A program made the position numbers and the translations under genes. Shown one piece after another: positions 16,732 through 40,102 of a stretch of 64,000 nucleotides of DNA; the stretch's first letter is position 1, and each line of letters begins with the position of its first letter. The notes beneath the pieces are model-generated. The model ran no database searches. It had not been told where the DNA came from and saw only the letters and a list, made by a program, of their open reading frames with translations. The DNA comes from Superficieibacter sp. 1612_C1 (lineage in GTDB: Bacteria; Pseudomonadota; Gammaproteobacteria; Enterobacterales; Enterobacteriaceae), in NCBI RefSeq assembly GCF_015234305.1, contig NZ_JADGMI010000003.1:124001-188000 (forward strand). The letters run 5' to 3'.

Positions 16732-16865
16732 CAGAACGCTGACAAAGTGGGTTGTCAGGGGAAACACCGGGATTGGGTTCCCGGAGGGAGGCCCAACCCG
16801 GTGGTCGCCCCGTGTTCCACGGACGGTTTGTCATCAACCTCAAACGGCGCAGAAATGCGCCGTTT
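16732..16865 (+). repeat. 134-bp duplicated unit with second terminator copy
   Basis: This stretch ends with an exact second copy (16838-16865) of the hairpin at 16704-16731. In between is another imperfect inverted repeat (CACCGGGATTGGG and CCCAACCCGGTG). No gene is supported; a short frame crossing the repeat has no ribosome site. It may be a small mobile repeat whose insertion duplicated the terminator. Confidence 0.5.
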
Positions 16866-28698: not shown

Positions 28699-28774
28699 GG
28701 CCCCTTAGCTCAGTGGTTAGAGCAGGCGACTCATAATCGCTTGGTCGCTGGTTCAAGTCCAGCAGGGGCCACCA
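28699..28774 (+). tRNA. ileX: tRNA-Ile2 (anticodon CAU, lysidine-modified)
   Basis: 76 nt with CCA encoded. It matches E. coli ileX from GGCCCCTTAGCTCAG to AGGGGCCACCA. The anticodon CAU is read as AUA after TilS converts C34 to lysidine. A -10 TATAAT lies at 28683-28688. The last 46 bases serve as the attachment site of the island that follows, and integration regenerates an intact tRNA gene. Confidence 0.98.
28729..28774 (+). other. attL of the ileX island
   Basis: 46 bp (ACTCATAATCGCTTGG...GGGGCCACCA) identical to 40057-40102. It includes the anticodon loop through the CCA end of ileX. Confidence 0.93.
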
Positions 28775-29183: not shown

Positions 29184-29960
29184 ATGACTACTAAGTTCGA
29201 ACAGTTGAAAAAAGAATTGGCCGATTTGGATAAAATGGGCACTCAGTTACTTTACTCTATGTATAAAGAACAAGATCAGCTTGATGAAGAAACAATAAAA
29301 AATATTACTGATAGTGGATGGAAGTTTGTTAATGTCCACCAACAATATCAAAACTGGTATACAAAAGCATATAGAGTAATCTCTCAAATCATCCCTGAAA
29401 GAAAGGTTGAATTTGAAATGTTGTATAAAGCAGATCCGAAAAGAAAAGAATTAACTTACGCTAACTACACGATTTCAGACTACATGATTAACATTGTTAA
29501 CGGCACCAGAACCCGGGGACCAAAAGATGCTATACCAAAGATGCAAATACAGTCAAAAATATTAAGTTCTGCCCGAGAAAGATTCAAGAGTGTATTATTT
29601 GATATAAAAGAAATTGTTCAAGCAGATTTTTATGATTCCGAGCTTGATACAGCTAAAGAACTGAACAAAAAAGGTTTCACGCGTGCTGCGGGTGCAGTTG
29701 CCGGTGTAGTACTTGAAAAGCATTTAGCTCACGTATGCTCAACCCATCAAATAAAAATAAAAAAAGCAAACCCTTCAATTTCGGAATATAATCAATTACT
29801 TAAAGATAGCGATATAACTGACACCGCTACATGGCGATTTATACAACACTTAGGTGATATAAGAAATTTATGCGATCACCACAAAGATAGAGAGCCTAAA
29901 AAAGATGAAGTTGATGAATATATTATTGGAATAATGAAAGTCACTAAAACTGTAAACTGA
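29184..29960 (+). CDS. HEPN-motif protein, candidate defence gene
   Basis: 258 aa, AT-rich compared with the backbone. I do not recognise a named family. The N-terminal 130 residues are helical with many charged residues. The C-terminal 100 residues (KGFTRAAGAVAGVVLEKHLAHV ..., then FIQHLGDIRNLCDHHKDREP) look like a HEPN/DUF4145-like helical domain. RNLCDH gives the R-x4-H signature of HEPN RNases. Such proteins often act as abortive-infection or toxin nucleases. Its place as edge cargo between attL and the packaging genes, on the opposite strand from them, fits an anti-phage accessory gene. Function is inferred, not shown. Confidence 0.6.
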   Translation: MTTKFEQLKKELADLDKMGTQLLYSMYKEQDQLDEETIKNITDSGWKFVNVHQQYQNWYTKAYRVISQIIPERKVEFEMLYKADPKRKELTYANYTISDYMINIVNGTRTRGPKDAIPKMQIQSKILSSARERFKSVLFDIKEIVQADFYDSELDTAKELNKKGFTRAAGAVAGVVLEKHLAHVCSTHQIKIKKANPSISEYNQLLKDSDITDTATWRFIQHLGDIRNLCDHHKDREPKKDEVDEYIIGIMKVTKTVN

Positions 29961-30239: not shown

Positions 30240-30428
30240 TTAACGGCGGGGTTGTTCTGGTTTCTTCCAATGAAACGGTGCAGAAGCTCTACGCTGACTA
30301 CGCCGTTTCTGGGCTGTCAGAGCTGCCGCTATGTTAGTACGGATCTTCAACTTGTCATGGCCGTTTAGTTCTTGCCCTTGCAAACGGGCCATTTCTGTAA
30401 GTACCGCCTCGATAGTTTCATGCTTCAT
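30240..30428 (-). CDS. Small basic protein downstream of the Nu1-like gene, 62 aa
   Basis: The ATG overlaps the stop of the small-terminase gene by four bases (ATGA), so it belongs to the same transcript. It is acidic/neutral at the start (MKHETIEAVLTEMARLQGQE) and strongly basic at the end (QKRRSQRR...KKPEQPRR), suggesting nucleic-acid or protein-shell contact. Lambda has the large terminase gene A at this place; this protein does not resemble its N terminus. Unknown role, possibly in packaging redirection. Confidence 0.6.
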   Translation of the reverse strand: MKHETIEAVLTEMARLQGQELNGHDKLKIRTNIAAALTAQKRRSQRRASAPFHWKKPEQPRR

Positions 30429-30928
30429 GAGTTGCGCTCATTATATTCTGTCAGTAAATCCGGAATAATTTCATCCAGTCCCGCGGCTTTGTTCATGGCC
30501 TTGATGACATTCTGCCGGATAAAATCGATGTGCCGGTTCTCCATCTCAGGAAAACGGCGGCTGACCGAAAGAGGAATGCTGTCCATAATTGACGCTATTT
30601 CACCGGCAATCCGGGATAACACAAACGTACAAAAAGCGGTGTCGATTACCTCGCCGGATTCCCGGGCGTTCTTCAGTTCCTGTGCATCAGCCTGGGCATT
30701 TGTGAGACGTATTCTTGCCCTGAGCAGTTCGGCATCATCAACATCATCGCCCTGCGAAATCAGTTTGCCTAATTCATTATCCAGCCGGTTACGCAGGACA
30801 CTGGCGACATCATAGAGCGCCTCCCGCCCGGCACGCTGAACAGGTTCGATTCCCCATTTATCGAAAGCAGTCACACCGACCTTACAGCTTTTCGCCATGT
30901 TCTTCTTATTCAGCAGATGCTGGGTCAT
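30425..30928 (-). CDS. Lambda Nu1-type terminase small subunit
   Basis: 167 aa from ATG 30928, preceded by AGAGGTAAAA; a longer frame to 30988 is less likely. The C-terminal two thirds is strikingly like lambda gpNu1: LTNAQADAQELKNARESGEV, then TAFCTFVLSRIAGEIASIMD, PLSVSRRFPEMENRH and IKAMNKAAGLDEIIPDLL. This part of Nu1 dimerises and binds the large subunit gpA. The N-terminal HTH region (KSCKVGVTAFDKWGIEPVQR) is clearly different from lambda Nu1, so it likely reads a different cosB. It begins 139 bp from the cosN cut site, similar to lambda. No gpA homolog is present in the island. Confidence 0.92.
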   Translation of the reverse strand: MTQHLLNKKNMAKSCKVGVTAFDKWGIEPVQRAGREALYDVASVLRNRLDNELGKLISQGDDVDDAELLRARIRLTNAQADAQELKNARESGEVIDTAFCTFVLSRIAGEIASIMDSIPLSVSRRFPEMENRHIDFIRQNVIKAMNKAAGLDEIIPDLLTEYNERNS

Positions 30929-31039
30929 TTTTACCTCTGTATTGTTTTTTTGAATGTTCAGGTGGGTGTATTGCATTAAATAAAACAAATAAATTCATTT
31001 AGATATTACAAACAACAACACCACCACCAGCAATTCAGA

Positions 31040-31110
31040 ACATCTCATAAATAGCGCGAATCTGCGAGGTCGACGCCCCGTAAGCGCCCGGGATGCCGGA
31101 AAGGACCCGC
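31040..31110 (-). other. Lambda-type cos site (cosQ-cosN)
   Basis: Read on the minus strand, GGGTCCTTTCC (31098-31108) matches lambda cosQ. After 14 bases, as in lambda by my recollection, TTACGGGGCGTCGACCTCGC follows, differing from lambda cosN by one base (T for G), then CGCTATTTATGA. The expected 12-nt cohesive end would be GGGCGTCGACCT (31067-31078). Downstream, towards the Nu1-type gene, the lambda cosB repeats are not recognisable. This matches the altered DNA-binding N terminus of the island's small terminase. The site would let a lambda-like terminase cut and package concatemeric island DNA. Confidence 0.85.
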
Positions 31111-31149: not shown

Positions 31150-31536
31150 TCACCCAAGGTTCTTGTGCTTCCCTTGCCGCGCCTGACGGCGCACGCGCTC
31201 GGCCTTCAGGCACAGCGCGGCATCAGGCTTTTTTGGTACAGGTACCTGACACTCACCATGGCTGTGTGGGATGTTATTGATCCACTCCACAACTTCGCTC
31301 AGATACCATGCCTTACGCCCTGAGGTGACCTGCACGCGCTCGGGGAATTCCCTCCGGGCTTCAAGGTTCAGCAATGTGCGGCGGCTCAGAGTGGTTATCT
31401 CCATCACCTGATTCATATCAACCAGGCGCTCACTGATATTCATTCTGTCTGCCAGATCCAACAGGCCTTTCACATCGCTGTCAGGCCAGAGAGTATTTGC
31501 GGTTGCCATCAGATCGTTATCGTTATGCTTCATCAT
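31150..31536 (-). CDS. AlpA-like helix-turn-helix regulator
   Basis: 128 aa. The central part (LVDMNQVMEITTLSRRTLLN through SGRKAWYLSEVVEWINNIP) is an AlpA/excisionase-type winged HTH. Phage-satellite AlpA proteins activate the island's own int/xis or late genes. The N-terminal 40 residues and the basic C terminus (KAERVRRQARQGKHK) are extensions compared with the about 70-aa AlpA. The ATG follows GAGGAATAA. It lies between the decoration protein gene and the cos site on the same strand. Confidence 0.72.
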   Translation of the reverse strand: MMKHNDNDLMATANTLWPDSDVKGLLDLADRMNISERLVDMNQVMEITTLSRRTLLNLEARREFPERVQVTSGRKAWYLSEVVEWINNIPHSHGECQVPVPKKPDAALCLKAERVRRQARQGKHKNLG

Positions 31537-31543
31537 TTATTCC

Positions 31544-31885
31544 TCAGACATTAGCCAGTGGCTGAACAGAAATACCAGAACCGACAAACGCGGCGACTTT
31601 TGCGCTCAGGGTTTCCACAGACTCGGGCCAGTTCAACGCATCAACATTCAGCACACCCGTTTTATATACCTGTGCTTTCGTCTGCCTGTCCGTGTCGATC
31701 TGAATGGCGGACGCATAGACAGCCCGGCTTGTTAGCTTCCCATCCCATGCCACCAGTTCACCGCTGGCTTCATCCTGCATGAGAGGAGTAAGCGCAGGGA
31801 TTACCCCTTTACCACCAGCGAAAATCCCCAGCGTGGTTACCAGCGCCTCAGTGCCGGCTACAAGCTCTGTGTAATGTGTCGTCAT
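31544..31885 (-). CDS. Lambda gpD-type head decoration protein
   Basis: 113 aa from ATG 31885 with AAGGAT seven bases upstream; lambda gpD is 110 aa. The match to gpD is clear in the core: ALTPLMQDEASGELVAWDGK (lambda has [20 protein letters not shown]), then VYKTGVLNVDALNWPE and the C-terminal FVGSGISV (lambda FAGTAISIV). gpD trimers cement the expanded lambda capsid and allow full-length packaging. It lies 10 bp after the capsid gene; the order E then D is reversed relative to lambda. Confidence 0.92.
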   Translation of the reverse strand: MTTHYTELVAGTEALVTTLGIFAGGKGVIPALTPLMQDEASGELVAWDGKLTSRAVYASAIQIDTDRQTKAQVYKTGVLNVDALNWPESVETLSAKVAAFVGSGISVQPLANV

Positions 31886-31895
31886 TAATGGATCC

Positions 31896-32936
31896 TTATG
31901 CCACGCGAACAGTGACAAAACGGTTGATACGTGCCGGGATCGGCTGCGGTGCGGAGTGGGTCTGAACATACTCAATCGCCGGATCACCCGGAACGATATA
32001 GTTCTTGGGGGCCATTTCTGCTTTGGTGATGTTCAGACGGATAAGTTCAGGGTCCTGAATACCGCCATAGGCGACGATACCCTGTAGGGCTGTATTTCCC
32101 AGCACCATCAGATCCGGATCAAGAAAGTGCTGCTCCTGCCCATCCTCGTCGTTATAGCGGCCGCTATAGACCACGATAGCCACATCTCCCATGTAACCCT
32201 TAAAACTCACGGAGTCACCCAGGTCTTTAAGCGCTGTCTCGAGCTGTGAATTGGAGCCACGGCGAGTATCCAGCATATCTTTTACCGACTTAAAGGAGCG
32301 GTATTTCTTCCAGACGTTGCCACCCATGACGATGATGTTCGTCACCCCTTCGCTAAGCTCTGCATAGGTTTCAATGTCATCATTAGGATCAAACGCCGCT
32401 TTGTCTTTACCTGACCACGCGGCGGCCCCCGCCTGGGTGACGATGTTCTGTGATTTAATATTCCAGTCCAGCTCGTAGCGCTCTATGCCTTCGCCCTCAA
32501 TAACATTCTTGCCGGTGGTGACAGCCTGCACCGCCAGCCATTCAATACGTGCACGGATAGCCAGCGACTGCTTTAGCAGTGCCTGCTTAATCTTGATATT
32601 GCGGGTGTCGAGCGTGCTATATTGCTCAGGAGAAACGCCAGCGGGCCGGACAGCCAGCTTATTAGGATCGATGCTGCTTTTCGGCTTCATGTAACCCGGA
32701 CGAATGGATTTTGACTCATATCCTTCATCCCGAGCTACTTTACTCCCCACCATTGGCGAGCAAAACGCTGCGATCGGGATGTTTGGATCGTCGATTGTGT
32801 CGAGGATGATATCGCGGGTTTCAAACGTGACAGAACGCGTGAAGAATAAATCAGTGAACAGAGTTTTTAGCTGTTTCTGGATGTCCTCAGCATTCACAAC
32901 CCGCACAAGCTGTGTAGGTGCATATATATCTGGCAT
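31896..32936 (-). CDS. Lambda gpE-type major capsid protein
   Basis: 346 aa (lambda gpE 341 aa). Strong resemblance in the C-terminal half, for example YDPNDDIETYAELSEGVTNIIV, SFKSVKDMLDTRRGSNSQLE and GDVAIVVYSG, and in GNTALQG and PGDPA near the end. It would form an HK97-fold shell. Lambda gpE needs scaffold Nu3, protease C and portal B to assemble, and none is encoded here. The shell must therefore be built with helper proteins or mixed with helper gpE, possibly altering capsid size. It has its own ribosome site (GAGGTTATTT). Confidence 0.93.
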   Translation of the reverse strand: MPDIYAPTQLVRVVNAEDIQKQLKTLFTDLFFTRSVTFETRDIILDTIDDPNIPIAAFCSPMVGSKVARDEGYESKSIRPGYMKPKSSIDPNKLAVRPAGVSPEQYSTLDTRNIKIKQALLKQSLAIRARIEWLAVQAVTTGKNVIEGEGIERYELDWNIKSQNIVTQAGAAAWSGKDKAAFDPNDDIETYAELSEGVTNIIVMGGNVWKKYRSFKSVKDMLDTRRGSNSQLETALKDLGDSVSFKGYMGDVAIVVYSGRYNDEDGQEQHFLDPDLMVLGNTALQGIVAYGGIQDPELIRLNITKAEMAPKNYIVPGDPAIEYVQTHSAPQPIPARINRFVTVRVA

Positions 32937-34371: not shown

Positions 34372-35742
34372 TTATTGACCCACTTCCCGCAATGACTGAA
34401 CTTTCAGCACTTCTCCGCTCTGAATAATGAGTCCATTATCTGTCAGCTTTTTGACCCAGCGGGCAAAGTGTTTGGTATCAATCCCCGTGGCTTTAAGGTC
34501 ATCACGGATCACTGCCAGGGTGCATGGTTCCCCCTTTGCCGTCCGGCTTCTGATTGCCTGCCAGAGCGCCATGTGGTTACCGCTGAGTTTCGATACACCA
34601 GCCAGATCCGGATCGATTTCTTTTGCTTCACGTGGTACATCACGTACCACCAGCGAACAGATCATCTCTCCGTCTTCGTCTGCGTAAAGCTCTACCATCC
34701 GGAGGTCATAGGCGTGGCGCTCGGGTTCCTCCGCATCCTTCATTTTGGTACATGAAAGGATCAGTGCTTTACCTTCCCCTTCCCGTTTCACATTGAACTC
34801 AGCATCAAGAGCAGCCCGGAAAGAACTGGAGCCACGCGCCCCTTTCGCTTCATCCTTACCGGAGTGGTGAACAACCAGCACGGTAGCGCCTGTCTTCTGC
34901 TTTATCACATCGCAGCCCTCGATAAATGCGCCCATGTCGCGGGCATCATTTTCGTCATTGCCTCCAAAGCAACGGGCCAGCGTATCGATCACAACGAGAC
35001 GTACAGGAGCGCCAGTTTCTTCTTCAATCTGCCGGGCCGCCAGCAGCACTTCATTCACTTCCTTTTCCCGCACCGGGAAAACGGGACGGTTAACCAGCCA
35101 GAGATTATCAACCTGTTGTTTATGGACCTGCTCCCATGCCTTAATACGCCGGGGTACGCCCACGCCACCCTCGCCCACCACATAGAGCACCGCTCCCGGC
35201 GTCACTTTTTTATCGGCCCATCTACGCCCGGCGGCGATATGGCAGGCCCATGAAACCGCCAAGAAGCTCTTATACGATCCGCTGGGGCCGTAGATACTGC
35301 ATAGCGACTGTGCCGGGAGAAAGTGCTTAACCACATAGTCCTGTCGCGCATTGAATCCCTCAGAGCCACGGGAGAGCGGTAATTTCGTGCGTTGCTGCTG
35401 GGGGGCCGACTCAGGAAAAACCCGCCGCACACGCTCTAAGTCTCTCAGCCATTCATAAAGCTCTTCTTCCCCGATTTCCTCCATAAGAACTGCCCGACGC
35501 GACTTGATCGCCTTGTCTTTATCCGTATTCAAAAAGCCTGCGGTACACATATCCTCATAGGGCATTGCGTAAAGAGTCCTGAGACGCGCCACCAGCTTAC
35601 CGTACCGGGTGGAAGTATCTTTATGCTGGTGGAGGGCTTTTTCCAGATCGCTGCGGCTATAAGGGCGGCCATGCGCCCATAAGTAAGAGCACGCGAAGAG
35701 CGCATCTGAAACAACTTCTACTGCTGTAATCTGCTCTGTCAT
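34372..35742 (-). CDS. RepA-like hexameric helicase/ATPase (island replication)
   Basis: 456 aa. A RecA-fold ATPase of the RSF1010 RepA / AAA_25 type. Walker A is GPSGSYKSFLAVSWACHIAAG (start about residue 137), Walker B is VRLVVIDTLARCFGG, and VLVVHHSGKDEAKGARGSSSFRAALD carries the sensor His and arginine-rich segment. The N-terminal about 120 residues may bind DNA, and the C-terminal HTH-like tail (FARWVKKLTDNGLIIQ) resembles a winged helix. Such proteins serve as replicative helicases in satellites and plasmids. Its stop region and the next gene upstream overlap by four bases. Confidence 0.85.
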   Translation of the reverse strand: MTEQITAVEVVSDALFACSYLWAHGRPYSRSDLEKALHQHKDTSTRYGKLVARLRTLYAMPYEDMCTAGFLNTDKDKAIKSRRAVLMEEIGEEELYEWLRDLERVRRVFPESAPQQQRTKLPLSRGSEGFNARQDYVVKHFLPAQSLCSIYGPSGSYKSFLAVSWACHIAAGRRWADKKVTPGAVLYVVGEGGVGVPRRIKAWEQVHKQQVDNLWLVNRPVFPVREKEVNEVLLAARQIEEETGAPVRLVVIDTLARCFGGNDENDARDMGAFIEGCDVIKQKTGATVLVVHHSGKDEAKGARGSSSFRAALDAEFNVKREGEGKALILSCTKMKDAEEPERHAYDLRMVELYADEDGEMICSLVVRDVPREAKEIDPDLAGVSKLSGNHMALWQAIRSRTAKGEPCTLAVIRDDLKATGIDTKHFARWVKKLTDNGLIIQSGEVLKVQSLREVGQ

Positions 35743-37448: not shown

Positions 37449-37658
37449 TTAAGCTGTCTGCGTACGACGTGTAGATGCCAGATAGCCATCAAGATCAGCT
37501 TTCATGTAAATGACCTTGCGCCCTACTTTGTGGTGTGGAATTTCGACCTTTCCGGTATGGGCCCAGTTAGCTAGGGTTTGAGCATTGACTCCAAGATAGG
37601 CAGCAGCTTCTGCGCGGGTAAGCCGTTCAAGGGATATCGAGGAAGTGGTTAGACGCAT
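37449..37658 (-). CDS. Excisionase-like HTH protein
   Basis: 69 aa from ATG 37658 (an upstream GTG at 37667 is possible). LTRAEAAAYLGVNAQTLANW followed by a wing, KVGRKVIYMKADLDGYL, is the MerR/excisionase-type winged helix of the DNA-binding domain family HTH_17. It lies on the integrase side and strand, so it may direct excision. The distinct AlpA-like protein near cos shows the island has two regulators of this fold. Confidence 0.78.
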   Translation of the reverse strand: MRLTTSSISLERLTRAEAAAYLGVNAQTLANWAHTGKVEIPHHKVGRKVIYMKADLDGYLASTRRTQTA

Positions 37659-37800
37659 ATTTATCACCGTGTATTGTTAGTTAACATCGGTGATGAATAT
37701 CTATGATGGAGTAATTAAATTTTAGCCACTTACCCGGCTATATGAGTACATCTGCATGGTAGATAGGGTGTGTAGCATGCTATTGCACCCCACTAGCATG

Positions 37801-38463
37801 CTAATGGGGTAGCACAAGCTCAAATGATGAATACTTTTCTGGTTTTGGGGGACGTAATCCAGACTTAGAGATCCATTTGGCAAGAGCATTACGGCTGACT
37901 TTTCCATAATAATGTGAACACAGCGCCTCATGTATACCCGTCTGGCTAGCATTTGGATATTTTTCCCAAGTAGCTTTTATTACAGAAATAACTTCCTCAT
38001 AGTGAACATGCCTTGGTTTAGACGCTTTAGCTTTATTAACATGGGAAATAACGTCTTTTTCAACCTCTTGTCCTAGGATATCTTTGAACATATCATTTGC
38101 AACCAGGCCATAAAACTCCATCCTCATGGCATAGCAAAGGTCTGTCATCCCCATAAGCTCAAATATTACGGCGGACCGAAAGAAATAATCCCCCTCCGTT
38201 CCTGACTTAGCATTAATTCTGAAAGCTAGTGCTGGTGGCGGTTCATCAGGAATAAAGTTAAGCCATAGGGTGTATTCTTGAGAGGAAATATAATTAATCA
38301 ACTCTTCCTTATCTGATGGCGAGATACTTTGAACATCTATTCCCATTGATTCGCATATTGATACTTGACTAAGCTTTTCACATACAGAACGAAAATACAC
38401 GAAAGTATCATTTATATCTCCAGCGAAAATATAATATGGCGCAAAACTAATTGTTATTTCCAT
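37801..38463 (-). CDS. Unknown 220-aa protein overlapping the integrase gene
   Basis: Not recognised. Its start overlaps the 3' end of the integrase gene by 17 bp, so the two are coupled. The N-terminal 130 residues are mixed alpha/beta (MEITISFAPYYIFAGDIND...). The C-terminal 60 residues contain an HTH-like stretch (ASQTGIHEALCSHYYGKVSR NALAKWISKSGLR, given in two parts) of the kind used to bind DNA. AT-rich. It could be a recombination directionality or regulatory protein; no function is claimed. Confidence 0.6.
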   Translation of the reverse strand: MEITISFAPYYIFAGDINDTFVYFRSVCEKLSQVSICESMGIDVQSISPSDKEELINYISSQEYTLWLNFIPDEPPPALAFRINAKSGTEGDYFFRSAVIFELMGMTDLCYAMRMEFYGLVANDMFKDILGQEVEKDVISHVNKAKASKPRHVHYEEVISVIKATWEKYPNASQTGIHEALCSHYYGKVSRNALAKWISKSGLRPPKPEKYSSFELVLPH

Positions 38464-39901
38464 AATCTTTACTCTGCGTATTGGTCAGATTAAAAAGTAT
38501 TTTTCTTTTTTCAGCATCACTAAGCTCTCCAAGAGCGAGCAAGAGCTTCGCTTCCAAAGATGCTTTGCTTTCGATAATTCCGGCGTGCTCAAGCATGGAG
38601 CGCTCGATGCGAGAGGCGGGATCCATCAGTTCATCCGCGCTGAAATGGAGATAGCCCTGGGTTACATCGGCGCTTCTCATAGTTCGGTGGTTAAGCAGCC
38701 GCTTGAGGATATAATTACCGACACCCACCAGCTCGGCGACAGTGCCAAACGTCCGGCGGCCGTCATGCCACTTGAATAGGATAGGCTGAACCATATCAGT
38801 GTTATGCTCAGGAACGGTGGCGGCGCTGATGCGAGCAATAATATGCCTGTACTCTTTAATTTCTCCCTTACCACCCGGGAAAACCAAACCGTGCTCGCCT
38901 GCCGTTATTTTCAAGCGCCGGCGGAAAAGCTGAAGCAGTGTATCTGTAATTGGCAACTCAAGCGGGTCACCGTTCTTGGTAGTATCTATCCAGAAATAGC
39001 GGGCTCCCAGATTTACCCGATCCCACGACAGCCCGAGTATCTCGGATTTACGCAAGCCGGTGAAAATGGCCATCTCTACTGCGTCACACACCGCAGCGGC
39101 TATGTCGTCTCGAGCCTGCTCTGCTGTACTGCGCACTGAAGCCAGAGCAGAGAACCATCGGGAAAGCTCATTCGTGCGGATGCGTTCCGTCTTCCTGACA
39201 GTACCATGCCACTTCCTTTTTGTGCTCAGCACCAGGGTCGGCGGATCAGGTAAGAGAGTTTTACCCTCACCGTCCCGATAATGATCGTGAGCAAAGCGAT
39301 AGATAGCACGCAGCACCCGCGCCCATAGATCAGCCTGGGCCTTGCTGCCCGAACCTACCCCGGCGCGCAGAGTAGTTTTGTCTGCCCCAAACCATATAGT
39401 TCCATCAGTAATGGCTTTATGCCGTGTTTCCACGCGCTCACGACTAATTGAGGCAATAGGTTGACTCATCCAGTCACCTGAAAAGTTTTGAAGGATAGAG
39501 CGATATTGTTTAGCGGTGTCAGCGCTCAGCCGGTGATCACGACTGGTGATATAGGTTTCCAGCGCCACAGCGAGAGTCACTAAGGCTTTCTCGTTAAGAC
39601 GCTTTACTACATTAGGGTTTTGTCCGGTTGTGGCAACATCCCCTAGTAGCTCAAGCGCCTTTGCCCTGGCATTGTCGATCGTCAGGTCAGGGAAGCGGCC
39701 CAGCGTAGCCCGGATAAATTTACCGTTGCGCTTTCTGGAGATACAAAAACTTTTAATGCCGCTACGGCCTACCCGGACGCGCAAACCATTGACAACGGTG
39801 TCGCCGTACTCAACCTGACCTTGTTCAGCACACGGAAGGTTTTCCAGCTTAACTTTAGTGAATTTGAATGTTTCCACAAACACCCCATACCAAGCGATCA
39901 A
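38447..39901 (-). CDS. Tyrosine recombinase (island integrase)
   Basis: Up to 484 aa. The first codon of the frame is TTG at 39901; GTG at 39883 or 39877 (VETFKFTKVKLENL) after GGGGTG is the more likely start. The N-terminal arm-binding and core-binding domains are followed by the catalytic domain: Arg in FTGLRKSEILGLSW, His-x-x-Arg in WHDGRRTFG, His in LLNHRTMRSADV and the nucleophile Tyr in GYLHFSADE. It lies about 160 bp inside attR, oriented leftward, as usual for tRNA-targeting islands. Catalytic residues are intact. Confidence 0.92.
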   Translation of the reverse strand: MIAWYGVFVETFKFTKVKLENLPCAEQGQVEYGDTVVNGLRVRVGRSGIKSFCISRKRNGKFIRATLGRFPDLTIDNARAKALELLGDVATTGQNPNVVKRLNEKALVTLAVALETYITSRDHRLSADTAKQYRSILQNFSGDWMSQPIASISRERVETRHKAITDGTIWFGADKTTLRAGVGSGSKAQADLWARVLRAIYRFAHDHYRDGEGKTLLPDPPTLVLSTKRKWHGTVRKTERIRTNELSRWFSALASVRSTAEQARDDIAAAVCDAVEMAIFTGLRKSEILGLSWDRVNLGARYFWIDTTKNGDPLELPITDTLLQLFRRRLKITAGEHGLVFPGGKGEIKEYRHIIARISAATVPEHNTDMVQPILFKWHDGRRTFGTVAELVGVGNYILKRLLNHRTMRSADVTQGYLHFSADELMDPASRIERSMLEHAGIIESKASLEAKLLLALGELSDAEKRKILFNLTNTQSKDYGNNN

Positions 39902-40056: not shown

Positions 40057-40102
40057 ACTCATAATCGCTTGGTCGCTGGTTCAAGTCCAGCAGGGGCCAC
40101 CA
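40057..40102 (+). other. attR of the ileX island (partial tRNA copy)
   Basis: 46 bp identical to the ileX 3' portion (28729-28774). It lacks the 5' half of the tRNA and is not itself a tRNA gene. Confidence 0.93.

What the first reader, a model, noticed from the sequence alone, without database searches (positions are those of the whole stretch)
31040..31110. Well-preserved lambda cosQ-cosN inside the island
On the minus strand GGGTCCTTTCC (cosQ) is followed at the same 14-base distance as in lambda by TTACGGGGCGTCGACCTCGC (cosN with one base changed) and then CGCTATTTATGA. Conservation of a non-coding packaging site next to a small terminase gene is strong evidence for selection on packaging. 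The predicted cohesive end GGGCGTCGACCT differs from lambda by one base, so island and helper ends would be almost but not fully complementary.
Basis: partly seen in the sequence, partly recalled or inferred. Interest (0 to 1): 0.82.

Follow-up and report, generated by a model that had tools for sequence, protein, structure and literature searches.

The report
Phage satellite with private packaging site
A small genetic parasite of lambda-like viruses keeps the virus's DNA-cutting site almost unchanged but carries its own version of the protein and landing sequence that choose which DNA is packed, so it probably diverts the virus's packaging motor to itself.

Summary
The lambda-type cosQ-cosN is real: 1 mismatch in 31 constrained bases, against 10-13 in the best hits of 30 shuffles. 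It lies in an 11.33-kb Gram-negative PICI of the EcCICFT073 kind, inserted in a CAT-anticodon tRNA gene, with open integrase, helicase, capE/capD and TerS genes and no lambda-type large terminase found in the host genome.

Downstream of cosN are an R3-like GGTGGTGGT (bp 51-59) and an inverted R2-like site. In 115 of 116 distinct cos-TerS units TerS helix class and R3 class agree; the exception is a typing artefact. The satellite class looks private: of 80 IMG/VR matches to its R3 pattern, 77 are cos sites, all 77 have this TerS and none shows a TerL (28 of 77 too short to judge well). EcCICFT073 has rppA where this island has terS.

Most likely, island TerS recognises the island's own cosB and brings helper TerL to the shared cosN. 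The 'not fully complementary ends' point fails: the T variant also occurs in phages with their own TerL (10 of 128 records).

New member of a known kind; the exchangeable cosB-gene cassette is the interesting part. No transfer was shown.

The parts
28729..28774 (+). att repeat 1: 3' 46 bases of an intact tRNA gene (28699-28774) with CAT anticodon, called tRNA-Met by ARAGORN; tRNA-Ile2 is my guess from its place near rpoD
   Evidence: 46/46 identical to 40057-40102; tRNA by ARAGORN and Rfam
40057..40102 (+). att repeat 2: partial tRNA copy at the other island end
   Evidence: unit 11,328 bp
38447..39901 (-). tyrosine integrase, 484 aa
   Evidence: PF00589, PF13356
37449..37667 (-). small HTH regulator (AlpA/excisionase-like), 72 aa
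   Evidence: PF12728; phrog_66
34372..35742 (-). RepA-like AAA helicase of the replication zone, 456 aa
   Evidence: PF13481; phrog_2850
31896..32936 (-). major capsid protein homologue (lambda gpE family), 346 aa
   Evidence: PF03864 E 3e-45
31544..31885 (-). head decoration protein homologue (gpD family); the ORF runs to 31987, relatives start near residue 35
   Evidence: PF02924
31150..31536 (-). AlpA-fold DNA-binding protein, 128 aa, just upstream of cos
   Evidence: PF05930; found in L040-L049
31098..31108 (-). cosQ, 11/11 lambda
31064..31083 (-). cosN 20-mer, 19/20 lambda; cohesive end GGGCGTCGACCT 31078-31067
31045..31056 (-). conserved CGCTATTTATGA
31011..31028 (-). R3-like element GGTGGTGGTGTTGTTGTT, bp 51-68 from the cohesive end
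   Evidence: 18 of 18 distinct satellite units, 0 of 88 distinct phage units; best of 82 phage cosB 78% over bp 48-70
30961..30973 (-). inverted R2-like element CAATACACCCACC, bp 106-118
   Evidence: 11-13 of 13 bases at the same position in 17 of 18 satellites (9 of 13 in L043); at most 10 of 13 in 82 phages
30425..30928 (-). TerS (Nu1 family), 167 aa; own N-terminal DNA-binding domain, lambda-like C-terminal domain
   Evidence: PF07471, phrog_57; domain identities; dN/dS 0.06 and 0.10 against L040 and L041
30240..30428 (-). 62-aa gene after terS
   Evidence: tblastn 79% in L040, partly in L041, 36-39% in E. coli islands L050-L053

Best explanation
The site is the working cos of an integrated phage satellite (Gram-negative PICI). 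When a lambda-like phage grows in the same cell, the island excises and replicates as concatemers. Island TerS binds the island's own cosB (R3/R2, GGTGGTGGT type) with its N-terminal winged-helix domain and, through its lambda-like C-terminal domain, brings helper TerL to the island's lambda-type cosN, which TerL cuts; cosQ then serves termination. The helper supplies TerL, portal and tail. TerS thus replaces the Rpp protein of the EcCICFT073 type. Shown here: the parts, their positions, the pairing of TerS class with R3 class, the natural terS/rppA swap, and purifying selection on terS. Inferred: DNA binding, TerL recruitment, packaging, and interference with the helper.
For: cos anatomy. TerS N-domain 23% and C-domain 71% identical to lambda Nu1; best phage C-domain 76% in a prophage of the same genus, L011, whose TerL is 89% like lambda's over the part seen. 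Helix class equals R3 class in 115 of 116 distinct units by the first typing, the exception (L011) being a lambda-type variant that my pattern missed, and in 41 of 41, 19 of 19 and 10 of 10 cluster representatives after widening the pattern. N-domain distance tracks R3 (r 0.89; partial 0.83 given C-domain), C-domain does not (partial -0.09). Of 80 IMG/VR stretches selected by the R3 pattern alone, 77 have the cosN core, all 77 have this TerS and none shows TerL; 49 of the 77 have 1,300 or more bases downstream to look at. EcCICFT073 against L050/L051/L053: the 2.3 kb before the cassette (capE to cos) 94-96% and the 0.4-0.6 kb after it 90-96% identical, with cosB+rppA replaced by cosB+terS. Window against L041: terS dS 0.19 but capE 2.0, capD 1.5, 128-aa gene 1.3, so terS moved recently. 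C-terminal TerL binding of lambda-type TerS is stated in PMC9026076 (parts 1-3 of 5 read).
Against: No helper in the host genome and no transfer data. Two TerS-bearing E. coli islands tested in 2018 (IHE3034, 18098) moved at no more than 110 transductants per ml (PMC6092414, passages). Relatives L042, L044, L047, L048 share the N-domain (77-81%) but not the lambda-like C-domain (44-51%), and L042 sits inside a prophage with lambda-type TerL, so matching of C-domain to helper TerL is not universal. One relative, L043, has a broken terS. All satellite TerS N-domains look like one lineage, so their pairing with R3 counts as few independent events. 3 of the 77 sites (L210, L220, L241) have no capE/capD match although 2.7 kb or more lies upstream. 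The structure model is weak (pLDDT 69.6) and Foldseek gave no significant match. No R1 or IHF site was identified.
Confidence: 0.66

Rival explanations
1. Island TerS works like Rpp: it forms a mixed complex with helper TerS, which supplies the TerL contact, and redirects it to the island cosB.
For: rppA and terS occupy the same slot between closely similar flanks. In several relatives the TerS C-domain is not phage-like, and for L042 the surrounding prophage has lambda-type TerL. Rpp and TerS share the DNA-binding fold (PMC6739421, passages).
Against: In this island the C-domain is lambda-like (71-76%) and conserved (dN/dS 0.06 in the C-domain), which an Rpp-type protein would not need; Rpps are reported to be shorter at the C-terminus (PMC9026076).
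Confidence: 0.2
2. The cos-terS segment is a relic of a decayed lambda-like prophage, no longer used.
For: Only fragments of the lambda late region are present; no lambda-type TerL or second cos was found in the genome.
Against: The order capE-capD-HTH-cos-specificity gene is shared with EcCICFT073 and other islands read here; att repeats are identical; terS is under purifying selection; cosB differs from phages in a way kept across satellites.
Confidence: 0.06
3. The island cos is recognised directly by the helper's own TerS-TerL; island TerS is accessory or an inhibitor.
For: Some PICIs carry a phage-type R3 at cos and no TerS or Rpp was found after it (L028/L056, L075, L095, L110, L128, L168). 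In this island the R3 segment is 78% identical to an N15-type R3.
Against: Its R3 differs from each of 82 distinct phage cosB, and over bp 48-140 the best phage is 55% identical; the R3 pattern was seen at no cos with TerL among the 80 IMG/VR stretches read, 28 of the 77 cos sites being too short to judge well.
Confidence: 0.08

Closest known systems
EcCICFT073 and other Rpp-type Gram-negative cos PICIs
   Same: Same gene order from integrase through HTH, replication gene, capE, capD and an HTH gene to cos and a specificity gene; lambda-type cosQ and cosN; cosB at the first cos unlike lambda's.
   Different: rppA with R3 CACCACCAC in place of terS with R3 GGTGGTGGT; EcCICFT073 has a second, inverted cos, this island has one.
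TerS-bearing enterobacterial PICIs (for example those of E. coli IHE3034 and 18098, named in PMC6092414; L049-L053 here)
   Same: Island-encoded TerS; in L049-L053 next to cos with capsid genes upstream and no TerL.
   Different: Other insertion sites; TerS C-domain of this island is lambda-like; single cos here but two in L050-L053; T at bp 6. Sequences of the IHE3034 and 18098 islands were not compared.
Helper-embedded PICIs (PMC10111431, passages)
   Same: Closest TerS relatives L040 and L041 (98%, 96%) and L042 are followed by the rest of a lambda-like E gene; L041 and L042 also share capE, capD, the 128-aa gene and cos.
   Different: This island is in a tRNA gene, not in a prophage. The paper also mentions PICIs in tRNA-Ile2.
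Staphylococcal SaPIs with their own TerS
   Same: Satellite TerS pairs with helper TerL to package satellite DNA (as summarised in PMC6092414 and PMC6739421, passages).
   Different: SaPI TerS acts at pac sites by headful packaging; here the cut is at a lambda-type cos. Sequences were not compared.
Lambda, N15 and 21 cos-terminase systems
   Same: cosQ, cosN, spacing, R3 position, TerS domain order.
   Different: R3 sequence and TerS recognition helix form a separate class; no TerL in the island.

Membership tests
Gram-negative PICI | Integrase and specific att site | tested here: met
   PF00589 integrase; 46/46 att repeat at a tRNA gene
Gram-negative PICI | AlpA/HTH regulator next to the integration zone | tested here: met
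   HTH_17/phrog_66 protein at 37449-37667; a second, PF05930 protein at 31150-31536
Gram-negative PICI | Own replication gene | tested here: met
   AAA_25 helicase, phrog_2850; homologues in other PICIs
Gram-negative PICI | Size 10-20 kb, no lytic or tail genes, no TerL | tested here: met
   11.33 kb; no GpA family match in the whole genome; no tail or lysis family among the 10 island proteins scanned
Gram-negative PICI | Induced, packaged and transferred by a helper phage | not testable with these tools
   needs an induction or transduction experiment
Lambda-type cos | cosQ, 14-base spacer, cosN with 12-base 5' end | tested here: met
Lambda-type cos | Lambda R3 sequence in cosB | tested here: not met
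   bp 51-68 is GGTGGTGGTGTTGTTGTT
Lambda-type cos | IHF site between R3 and R2 | not tested
   AT-rich interval seen by eye; no IHF matrix applied
Capsid-forming PICI (cf-PICI; definition recalled) | Own TerL, portal and full head gene set | tested here: not met
   Only capE, capD and TerS recognised; no TerL
Helper-embedded PICI | Inserted in a prophage late gene | tested here: not met
   att repeats lie at a tRNA gene in chromosomal DNA
Rpp-type PICI | Rpp protein after cos, R3 CACCACCAC | tested here: not met
   TerS instead; GGTGGTGGT instead

The most novel reading that the evidence does not exclude
In this satellite family the stretch from cosN onwards (cosB plus its recogniser, TerS or Rpp) is an exchangeable cassette whose junctions are the cos sites themselves. 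Helper terminase would cut at cosN, and the constant 12-base cohesive ends would let cassettes rejoin in new combinations, or flip where two cos sites face each other, so a satellite can change which packaging specificity it uses while cosQ-cosN and the neighbouring genes stay constant. The island here carries the satellite-only TerS allele, moved in recently with its left border at or near cosN. The pattern of exchange is seen; that terminase drives it is a guess, and ordinary homologous recombination at the conserved cos would look alike.
Probability: 0.3. Interest if true: 0.8.

Novelty: new member of a known kind. Interest (0 to 1): 0.56.

Why it matters
Cos-type Gram-negative PICIs have been explained through Rpp, which needs the helper's TerS. 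This island and its relatives point to a second solution in the same slot: a satellite TerS with its own landing site, so far seen only in satellites. It gives a concrete way to ask how a satellite redirects a lambda-type motor without Rpp, why TerS-bearing islands moved poorly with the prophages tried so far, and, through the two-cos relatives, why some PICIs have two cos sites, a question left open in print (PMC6739421, passage).

Tried and rejected
Rejected: that the T at bp 6 marks the island as distinct from helpers (it occurs in phages with TerL). Rejected: that island and helper cosN must match; of four satellites embedded in a prophage, two have the helper's cosN 20-mer exactly (L042/L058, L049/L074), one 18/20 (L041/L068), one 15/20 (L048/L065). 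Considered and dropped: that the 128-aa protein upstream of cos is an Rpp; the PDB sequence search gave only an AlpA protein. Led nowhere: PADLOC and NCBIfam scans of the unknown genes (one weak PADLOC match for the 128-aa protein, E 2.4e-4; the integrase only below its NCBIfam cut-off); structure model of TerS (pLDDT 69.6; secondary structure fits a winged helix at residues 8-58) with no significant Foldseek match, best E 0.26.

Class patterns for helix and R3 were written after looking at the sequences and widened once; searches are the less biased test, since they selected by R3 alone. One search found 85 stretches, of which 80 were listed and read; 3 of these 80 have no cosN and no TerS; one of the 77 has cosQ out of register. 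The Mantel permutation does not correct for relatedness; 108 units entered it. A mistake of mine: the N15 ends were joined with the 12-base end counted twice, which shifted N15's R3; one search repeats the affected numbers with the join corrected (r and partial r unchanged to two decimals).

Full report
WHAT IS THERE. The minus strand at 31108-31045 holds cosQ, a 14-base spacer, cosN and CGCTATTTATGA as described. Compared with lambda NC_001416, cosQ is 11/11, the spacer 6/14, cosN 19/20. Over the whole window the best cosQ-14-cosN fit has 1 mismatch in 31, against 10-13 in 30 shuffles of two-base blocks. In the 5.05-Mb host genome it is the only exact hit to the 16-base core; no hit has 1 or 2 mismatches. 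In 392 genomes of the family the core pattern was found in 16.

THE ELEMENT. The site lies in an island of 11,328 bp between two identical 46-base copies of the 3' end of a tRNA gene with CAT anticodon; ARAGORN calls it tRNA-Met, and tRNA-Ile2, a PICI site named in PMC10111431 (passages), is my guess. Reading from the integrase: integrase, a 220-aa ORF, a 72-aa HTH protein, a RepA-like helicase, a 372-aa ORF, capE, capD, a 128-aa AlpA-fold protein, cos, TerS, a 62-aa ORF; smaller ORFs are left out, and a 258-aa ORF without family match lies on the other strand at the far end. No match to the lambda-type terminase family PF05876 was found in the genome; of the 4 genomes of the genus searched, the other 3 have one, and one of them (G056, locus L011) is a lambda-like prophage. 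This is a Gram-negative PICI. EcCICFT073, fetched for comparison, has the same order, with a 145-codon gene in the rppA place where this island has terS.

COSB AND TERS. Downstream of cosN the island no longer resembles lambda. At bp 51-59 from the cohesive end stands GGTGGTGGT, where lambda and N15 have their R3 (PMC9026076, parts 1-3 of 5; PMC4669245, passages), and at bp 106-118 an inverted CAATACACCCACC. Of 18 distinct satellites all have the first, and 17 have 11-13 of the 13 bases of the second at the same position (L043: 9); of 82 distinct phage cosB none has more than 10. The TerS is a mosaic: N-terminal domain 23%, C-terminal domain 71% identical to lambda Nu1. Its recognition helix reads GVTAFDKW; N15-type phages have SVQAFDKW with R3 GGTTGTTGTT.

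A PRIVATE SPECIFICITY CLASS. From 211 cos records I took 116 distinct cos-TerS units: 88 phage, 18 satellite, 10 unclear. TerS helix class and R3 class agree for lambda type 43, 21 type 14, N15 type 18, a QLRRLQ type 12, satellite type 18, and the 10 unclear ones; one phage unit (L011) failed my first pattern and is a lambda-type variant. With one representative per N-domain cluster the agreement is 41/41, 19/19 and 10/10 at 95, 80 and 70% identity. N-domain distance follows R3 distance (r 0.89; 0.83 with the C-domain held constant), the C-domain does not (-0.09). Selecting IMG/VR by the R3 pattern alone gave 85 stretches, 80 listed: 77 have the cosN core, and all 77 are followed by this TerS type. 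No TerL was seen, but only 49 of the 77 have 1,300 or more bases downstream. 70 have capE or capD upstream, 4 have under 700 bases there, and 3 (L210, L220, L241) have 2.7 kb or more without a match. The Rpp R3 (CACCACCAC, bp 54-62) gave 18 of 18 with Rpp and capsid genes and no TerL seen, 9 of them short downstream. Caution: satellite TerS N-domains look like one lineage, so this is few independent events, and the class patterns were written after inspection.

EXCHANGE OF THE CASSETTE. EcCICFT073 and the TerS islands L050, L051, L053 are 94-96% identical over the 2.3 kb up to the first cos and 90-96% over 0.4-0.6 kb from the second cos on; in between, cosB+rppA is replaced by cosB+terS, with borders about 40-46 bases inside each cos. 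Other parts of these islands differ too, notably the replication zone of L050 and L051. The island in the window shows a like pattern on a single-cos background: against L041, 60-base blocks are 0.48-0.88 identical over the 128-aa gene and the gap before cosQ, 0.82-0.98 from cosN through terS, then 0.54 and 0.33-0.38, and synonymous divergence is 0.19 in terS against 2.0 in capE, 1.5 in capD and 1.3 in the 128-aa gene. So terS came in recently; dN/dS is 0.06 (L040) and 0.10 (L041), so it is under purifying selection. Against a simple reading, relatives with the same N-domain (L042, L044, L047, L048) have a different, not phage-like C-domain, and L043 has a broken terS.

THE COHESIVE END. GGGCGTCGACCT is not special to the island: TTACGGGGCGTCGACCTCGC is in seven IMG/VR stretches, five with TerS and TerL, two PICIs. 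Among cos records with TerS and TerL, 10 of 128 have T at bp 6; among distinct phage sequences 88 G, 9 A, 5 T. A helper need not share it: of four embedded satellites two differ from their own helper's cosN, and published work shows that a two-base mismatch costs about fourfold (PMC4669245).

HOW IT LIKELY WORKS. Island TerS chooses island DNA at its own cosB and hands helper TerL the shared cosN. The island keeps what TerL reads (cosQ, cosN, and in this case the TerS C-domain) and has its own version of what TerS reads. The chief rival is an Rpp-like mixed complex with helper TerS. A unit of 11,328 bp would fit four times into a lambda head (45.3 kb, 93% of lambda); whether capE and capD instead make small heads is open.

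WHAT IS KNOWN. Some Gram-negative PICIs were listed with terS in 2018, and two such E. coli islands moved at no more than 110 per ml with their resident prophages (PMC6092414, passages). Rpp was worked out in 2019 and re-analysed in 2022 (PMC6739421, passages; PMC9026076, parts 1-3 of 5, and a term search). Helper-embedded relatives were described in 2023 (PMC10111431, passages). In the open-access library, the listings of the searches showed no paper on how TerS works in a cos-type Gram-negative PICI; most subscription papers are not held. I therefore file the island as a new member of a known kind and put the novelty in the cassette.

Noticed in passing
L095, L110, L168 against L128: Between two inverted cos sites these PICIs carry a 511-bp cassette with two phage-type cosB; in L128 it is inverted (99% identical as reverse complement, 42-43% directly) between flanks 92-99.7% identical. 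Both orientations occur in E. coli complete-genome records: a 551-base junction query is covered at 80% or more in 22 and in 3 of 5,426 genomes.
   Followed up: partly
L233 33314 (-), EcCICFT073: The second cos of EcCICFT073 has a cosB 99% identical (bp 48-140; R3 100%) to a phage cosB of the QLRRLQ TerS class, the class of the prophage just upstream (L234). Second cos sites of other islands have 21-type R3 (87-100% to the best phage) or N15-like R3 (83%).
   Followed up: partly
cosB of TerS-type against Rpp-type satellites: GTGGTGGTG at bp 52-60 in TerS islands and its reverse complement CACCACCAC at bp 54-62 (56-64 in L081) in Rpp islands. Unexplained; both are simple triplet repeats.
   Followed up: no
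window 31150-31536 (-): An AlpA-fold protein with a basic tail precedes cos in L040-L049; E. coli islands and EcCICFT073 have a 137-aa ORF in that place. Role unknown.
   Followed up: no
window 29184-29960 (+): 258-aa ORF at the island end, opposite strand, no match in Pfam, PHROGs, NCBIfam or PADLOC; an RNLCDHH stretch recalls HEPN proteins (recalled, untested).
   Followed up: no
L034, L035, L036: Lambda-like cos (L034 and L036 identical to lambda over the bases printed) in records labelled Aeromicrobium, Archangium and an Alicyclobacillus plasmid; perhaps lambda or cosmid DNA in the assemblies.
   Followed up: no
L021 and L004 (same contig as L058, L042): A helper-embedded PICI and its helper share cosQ-spacer-cosN at 44 of 45 bases while both flanks differ.
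   Followed up: partly
window 16740-16835 (+): ARAGORN reports an odd tRNA with a four-base anticodon; Rfam does not report it.
   Followed up: no
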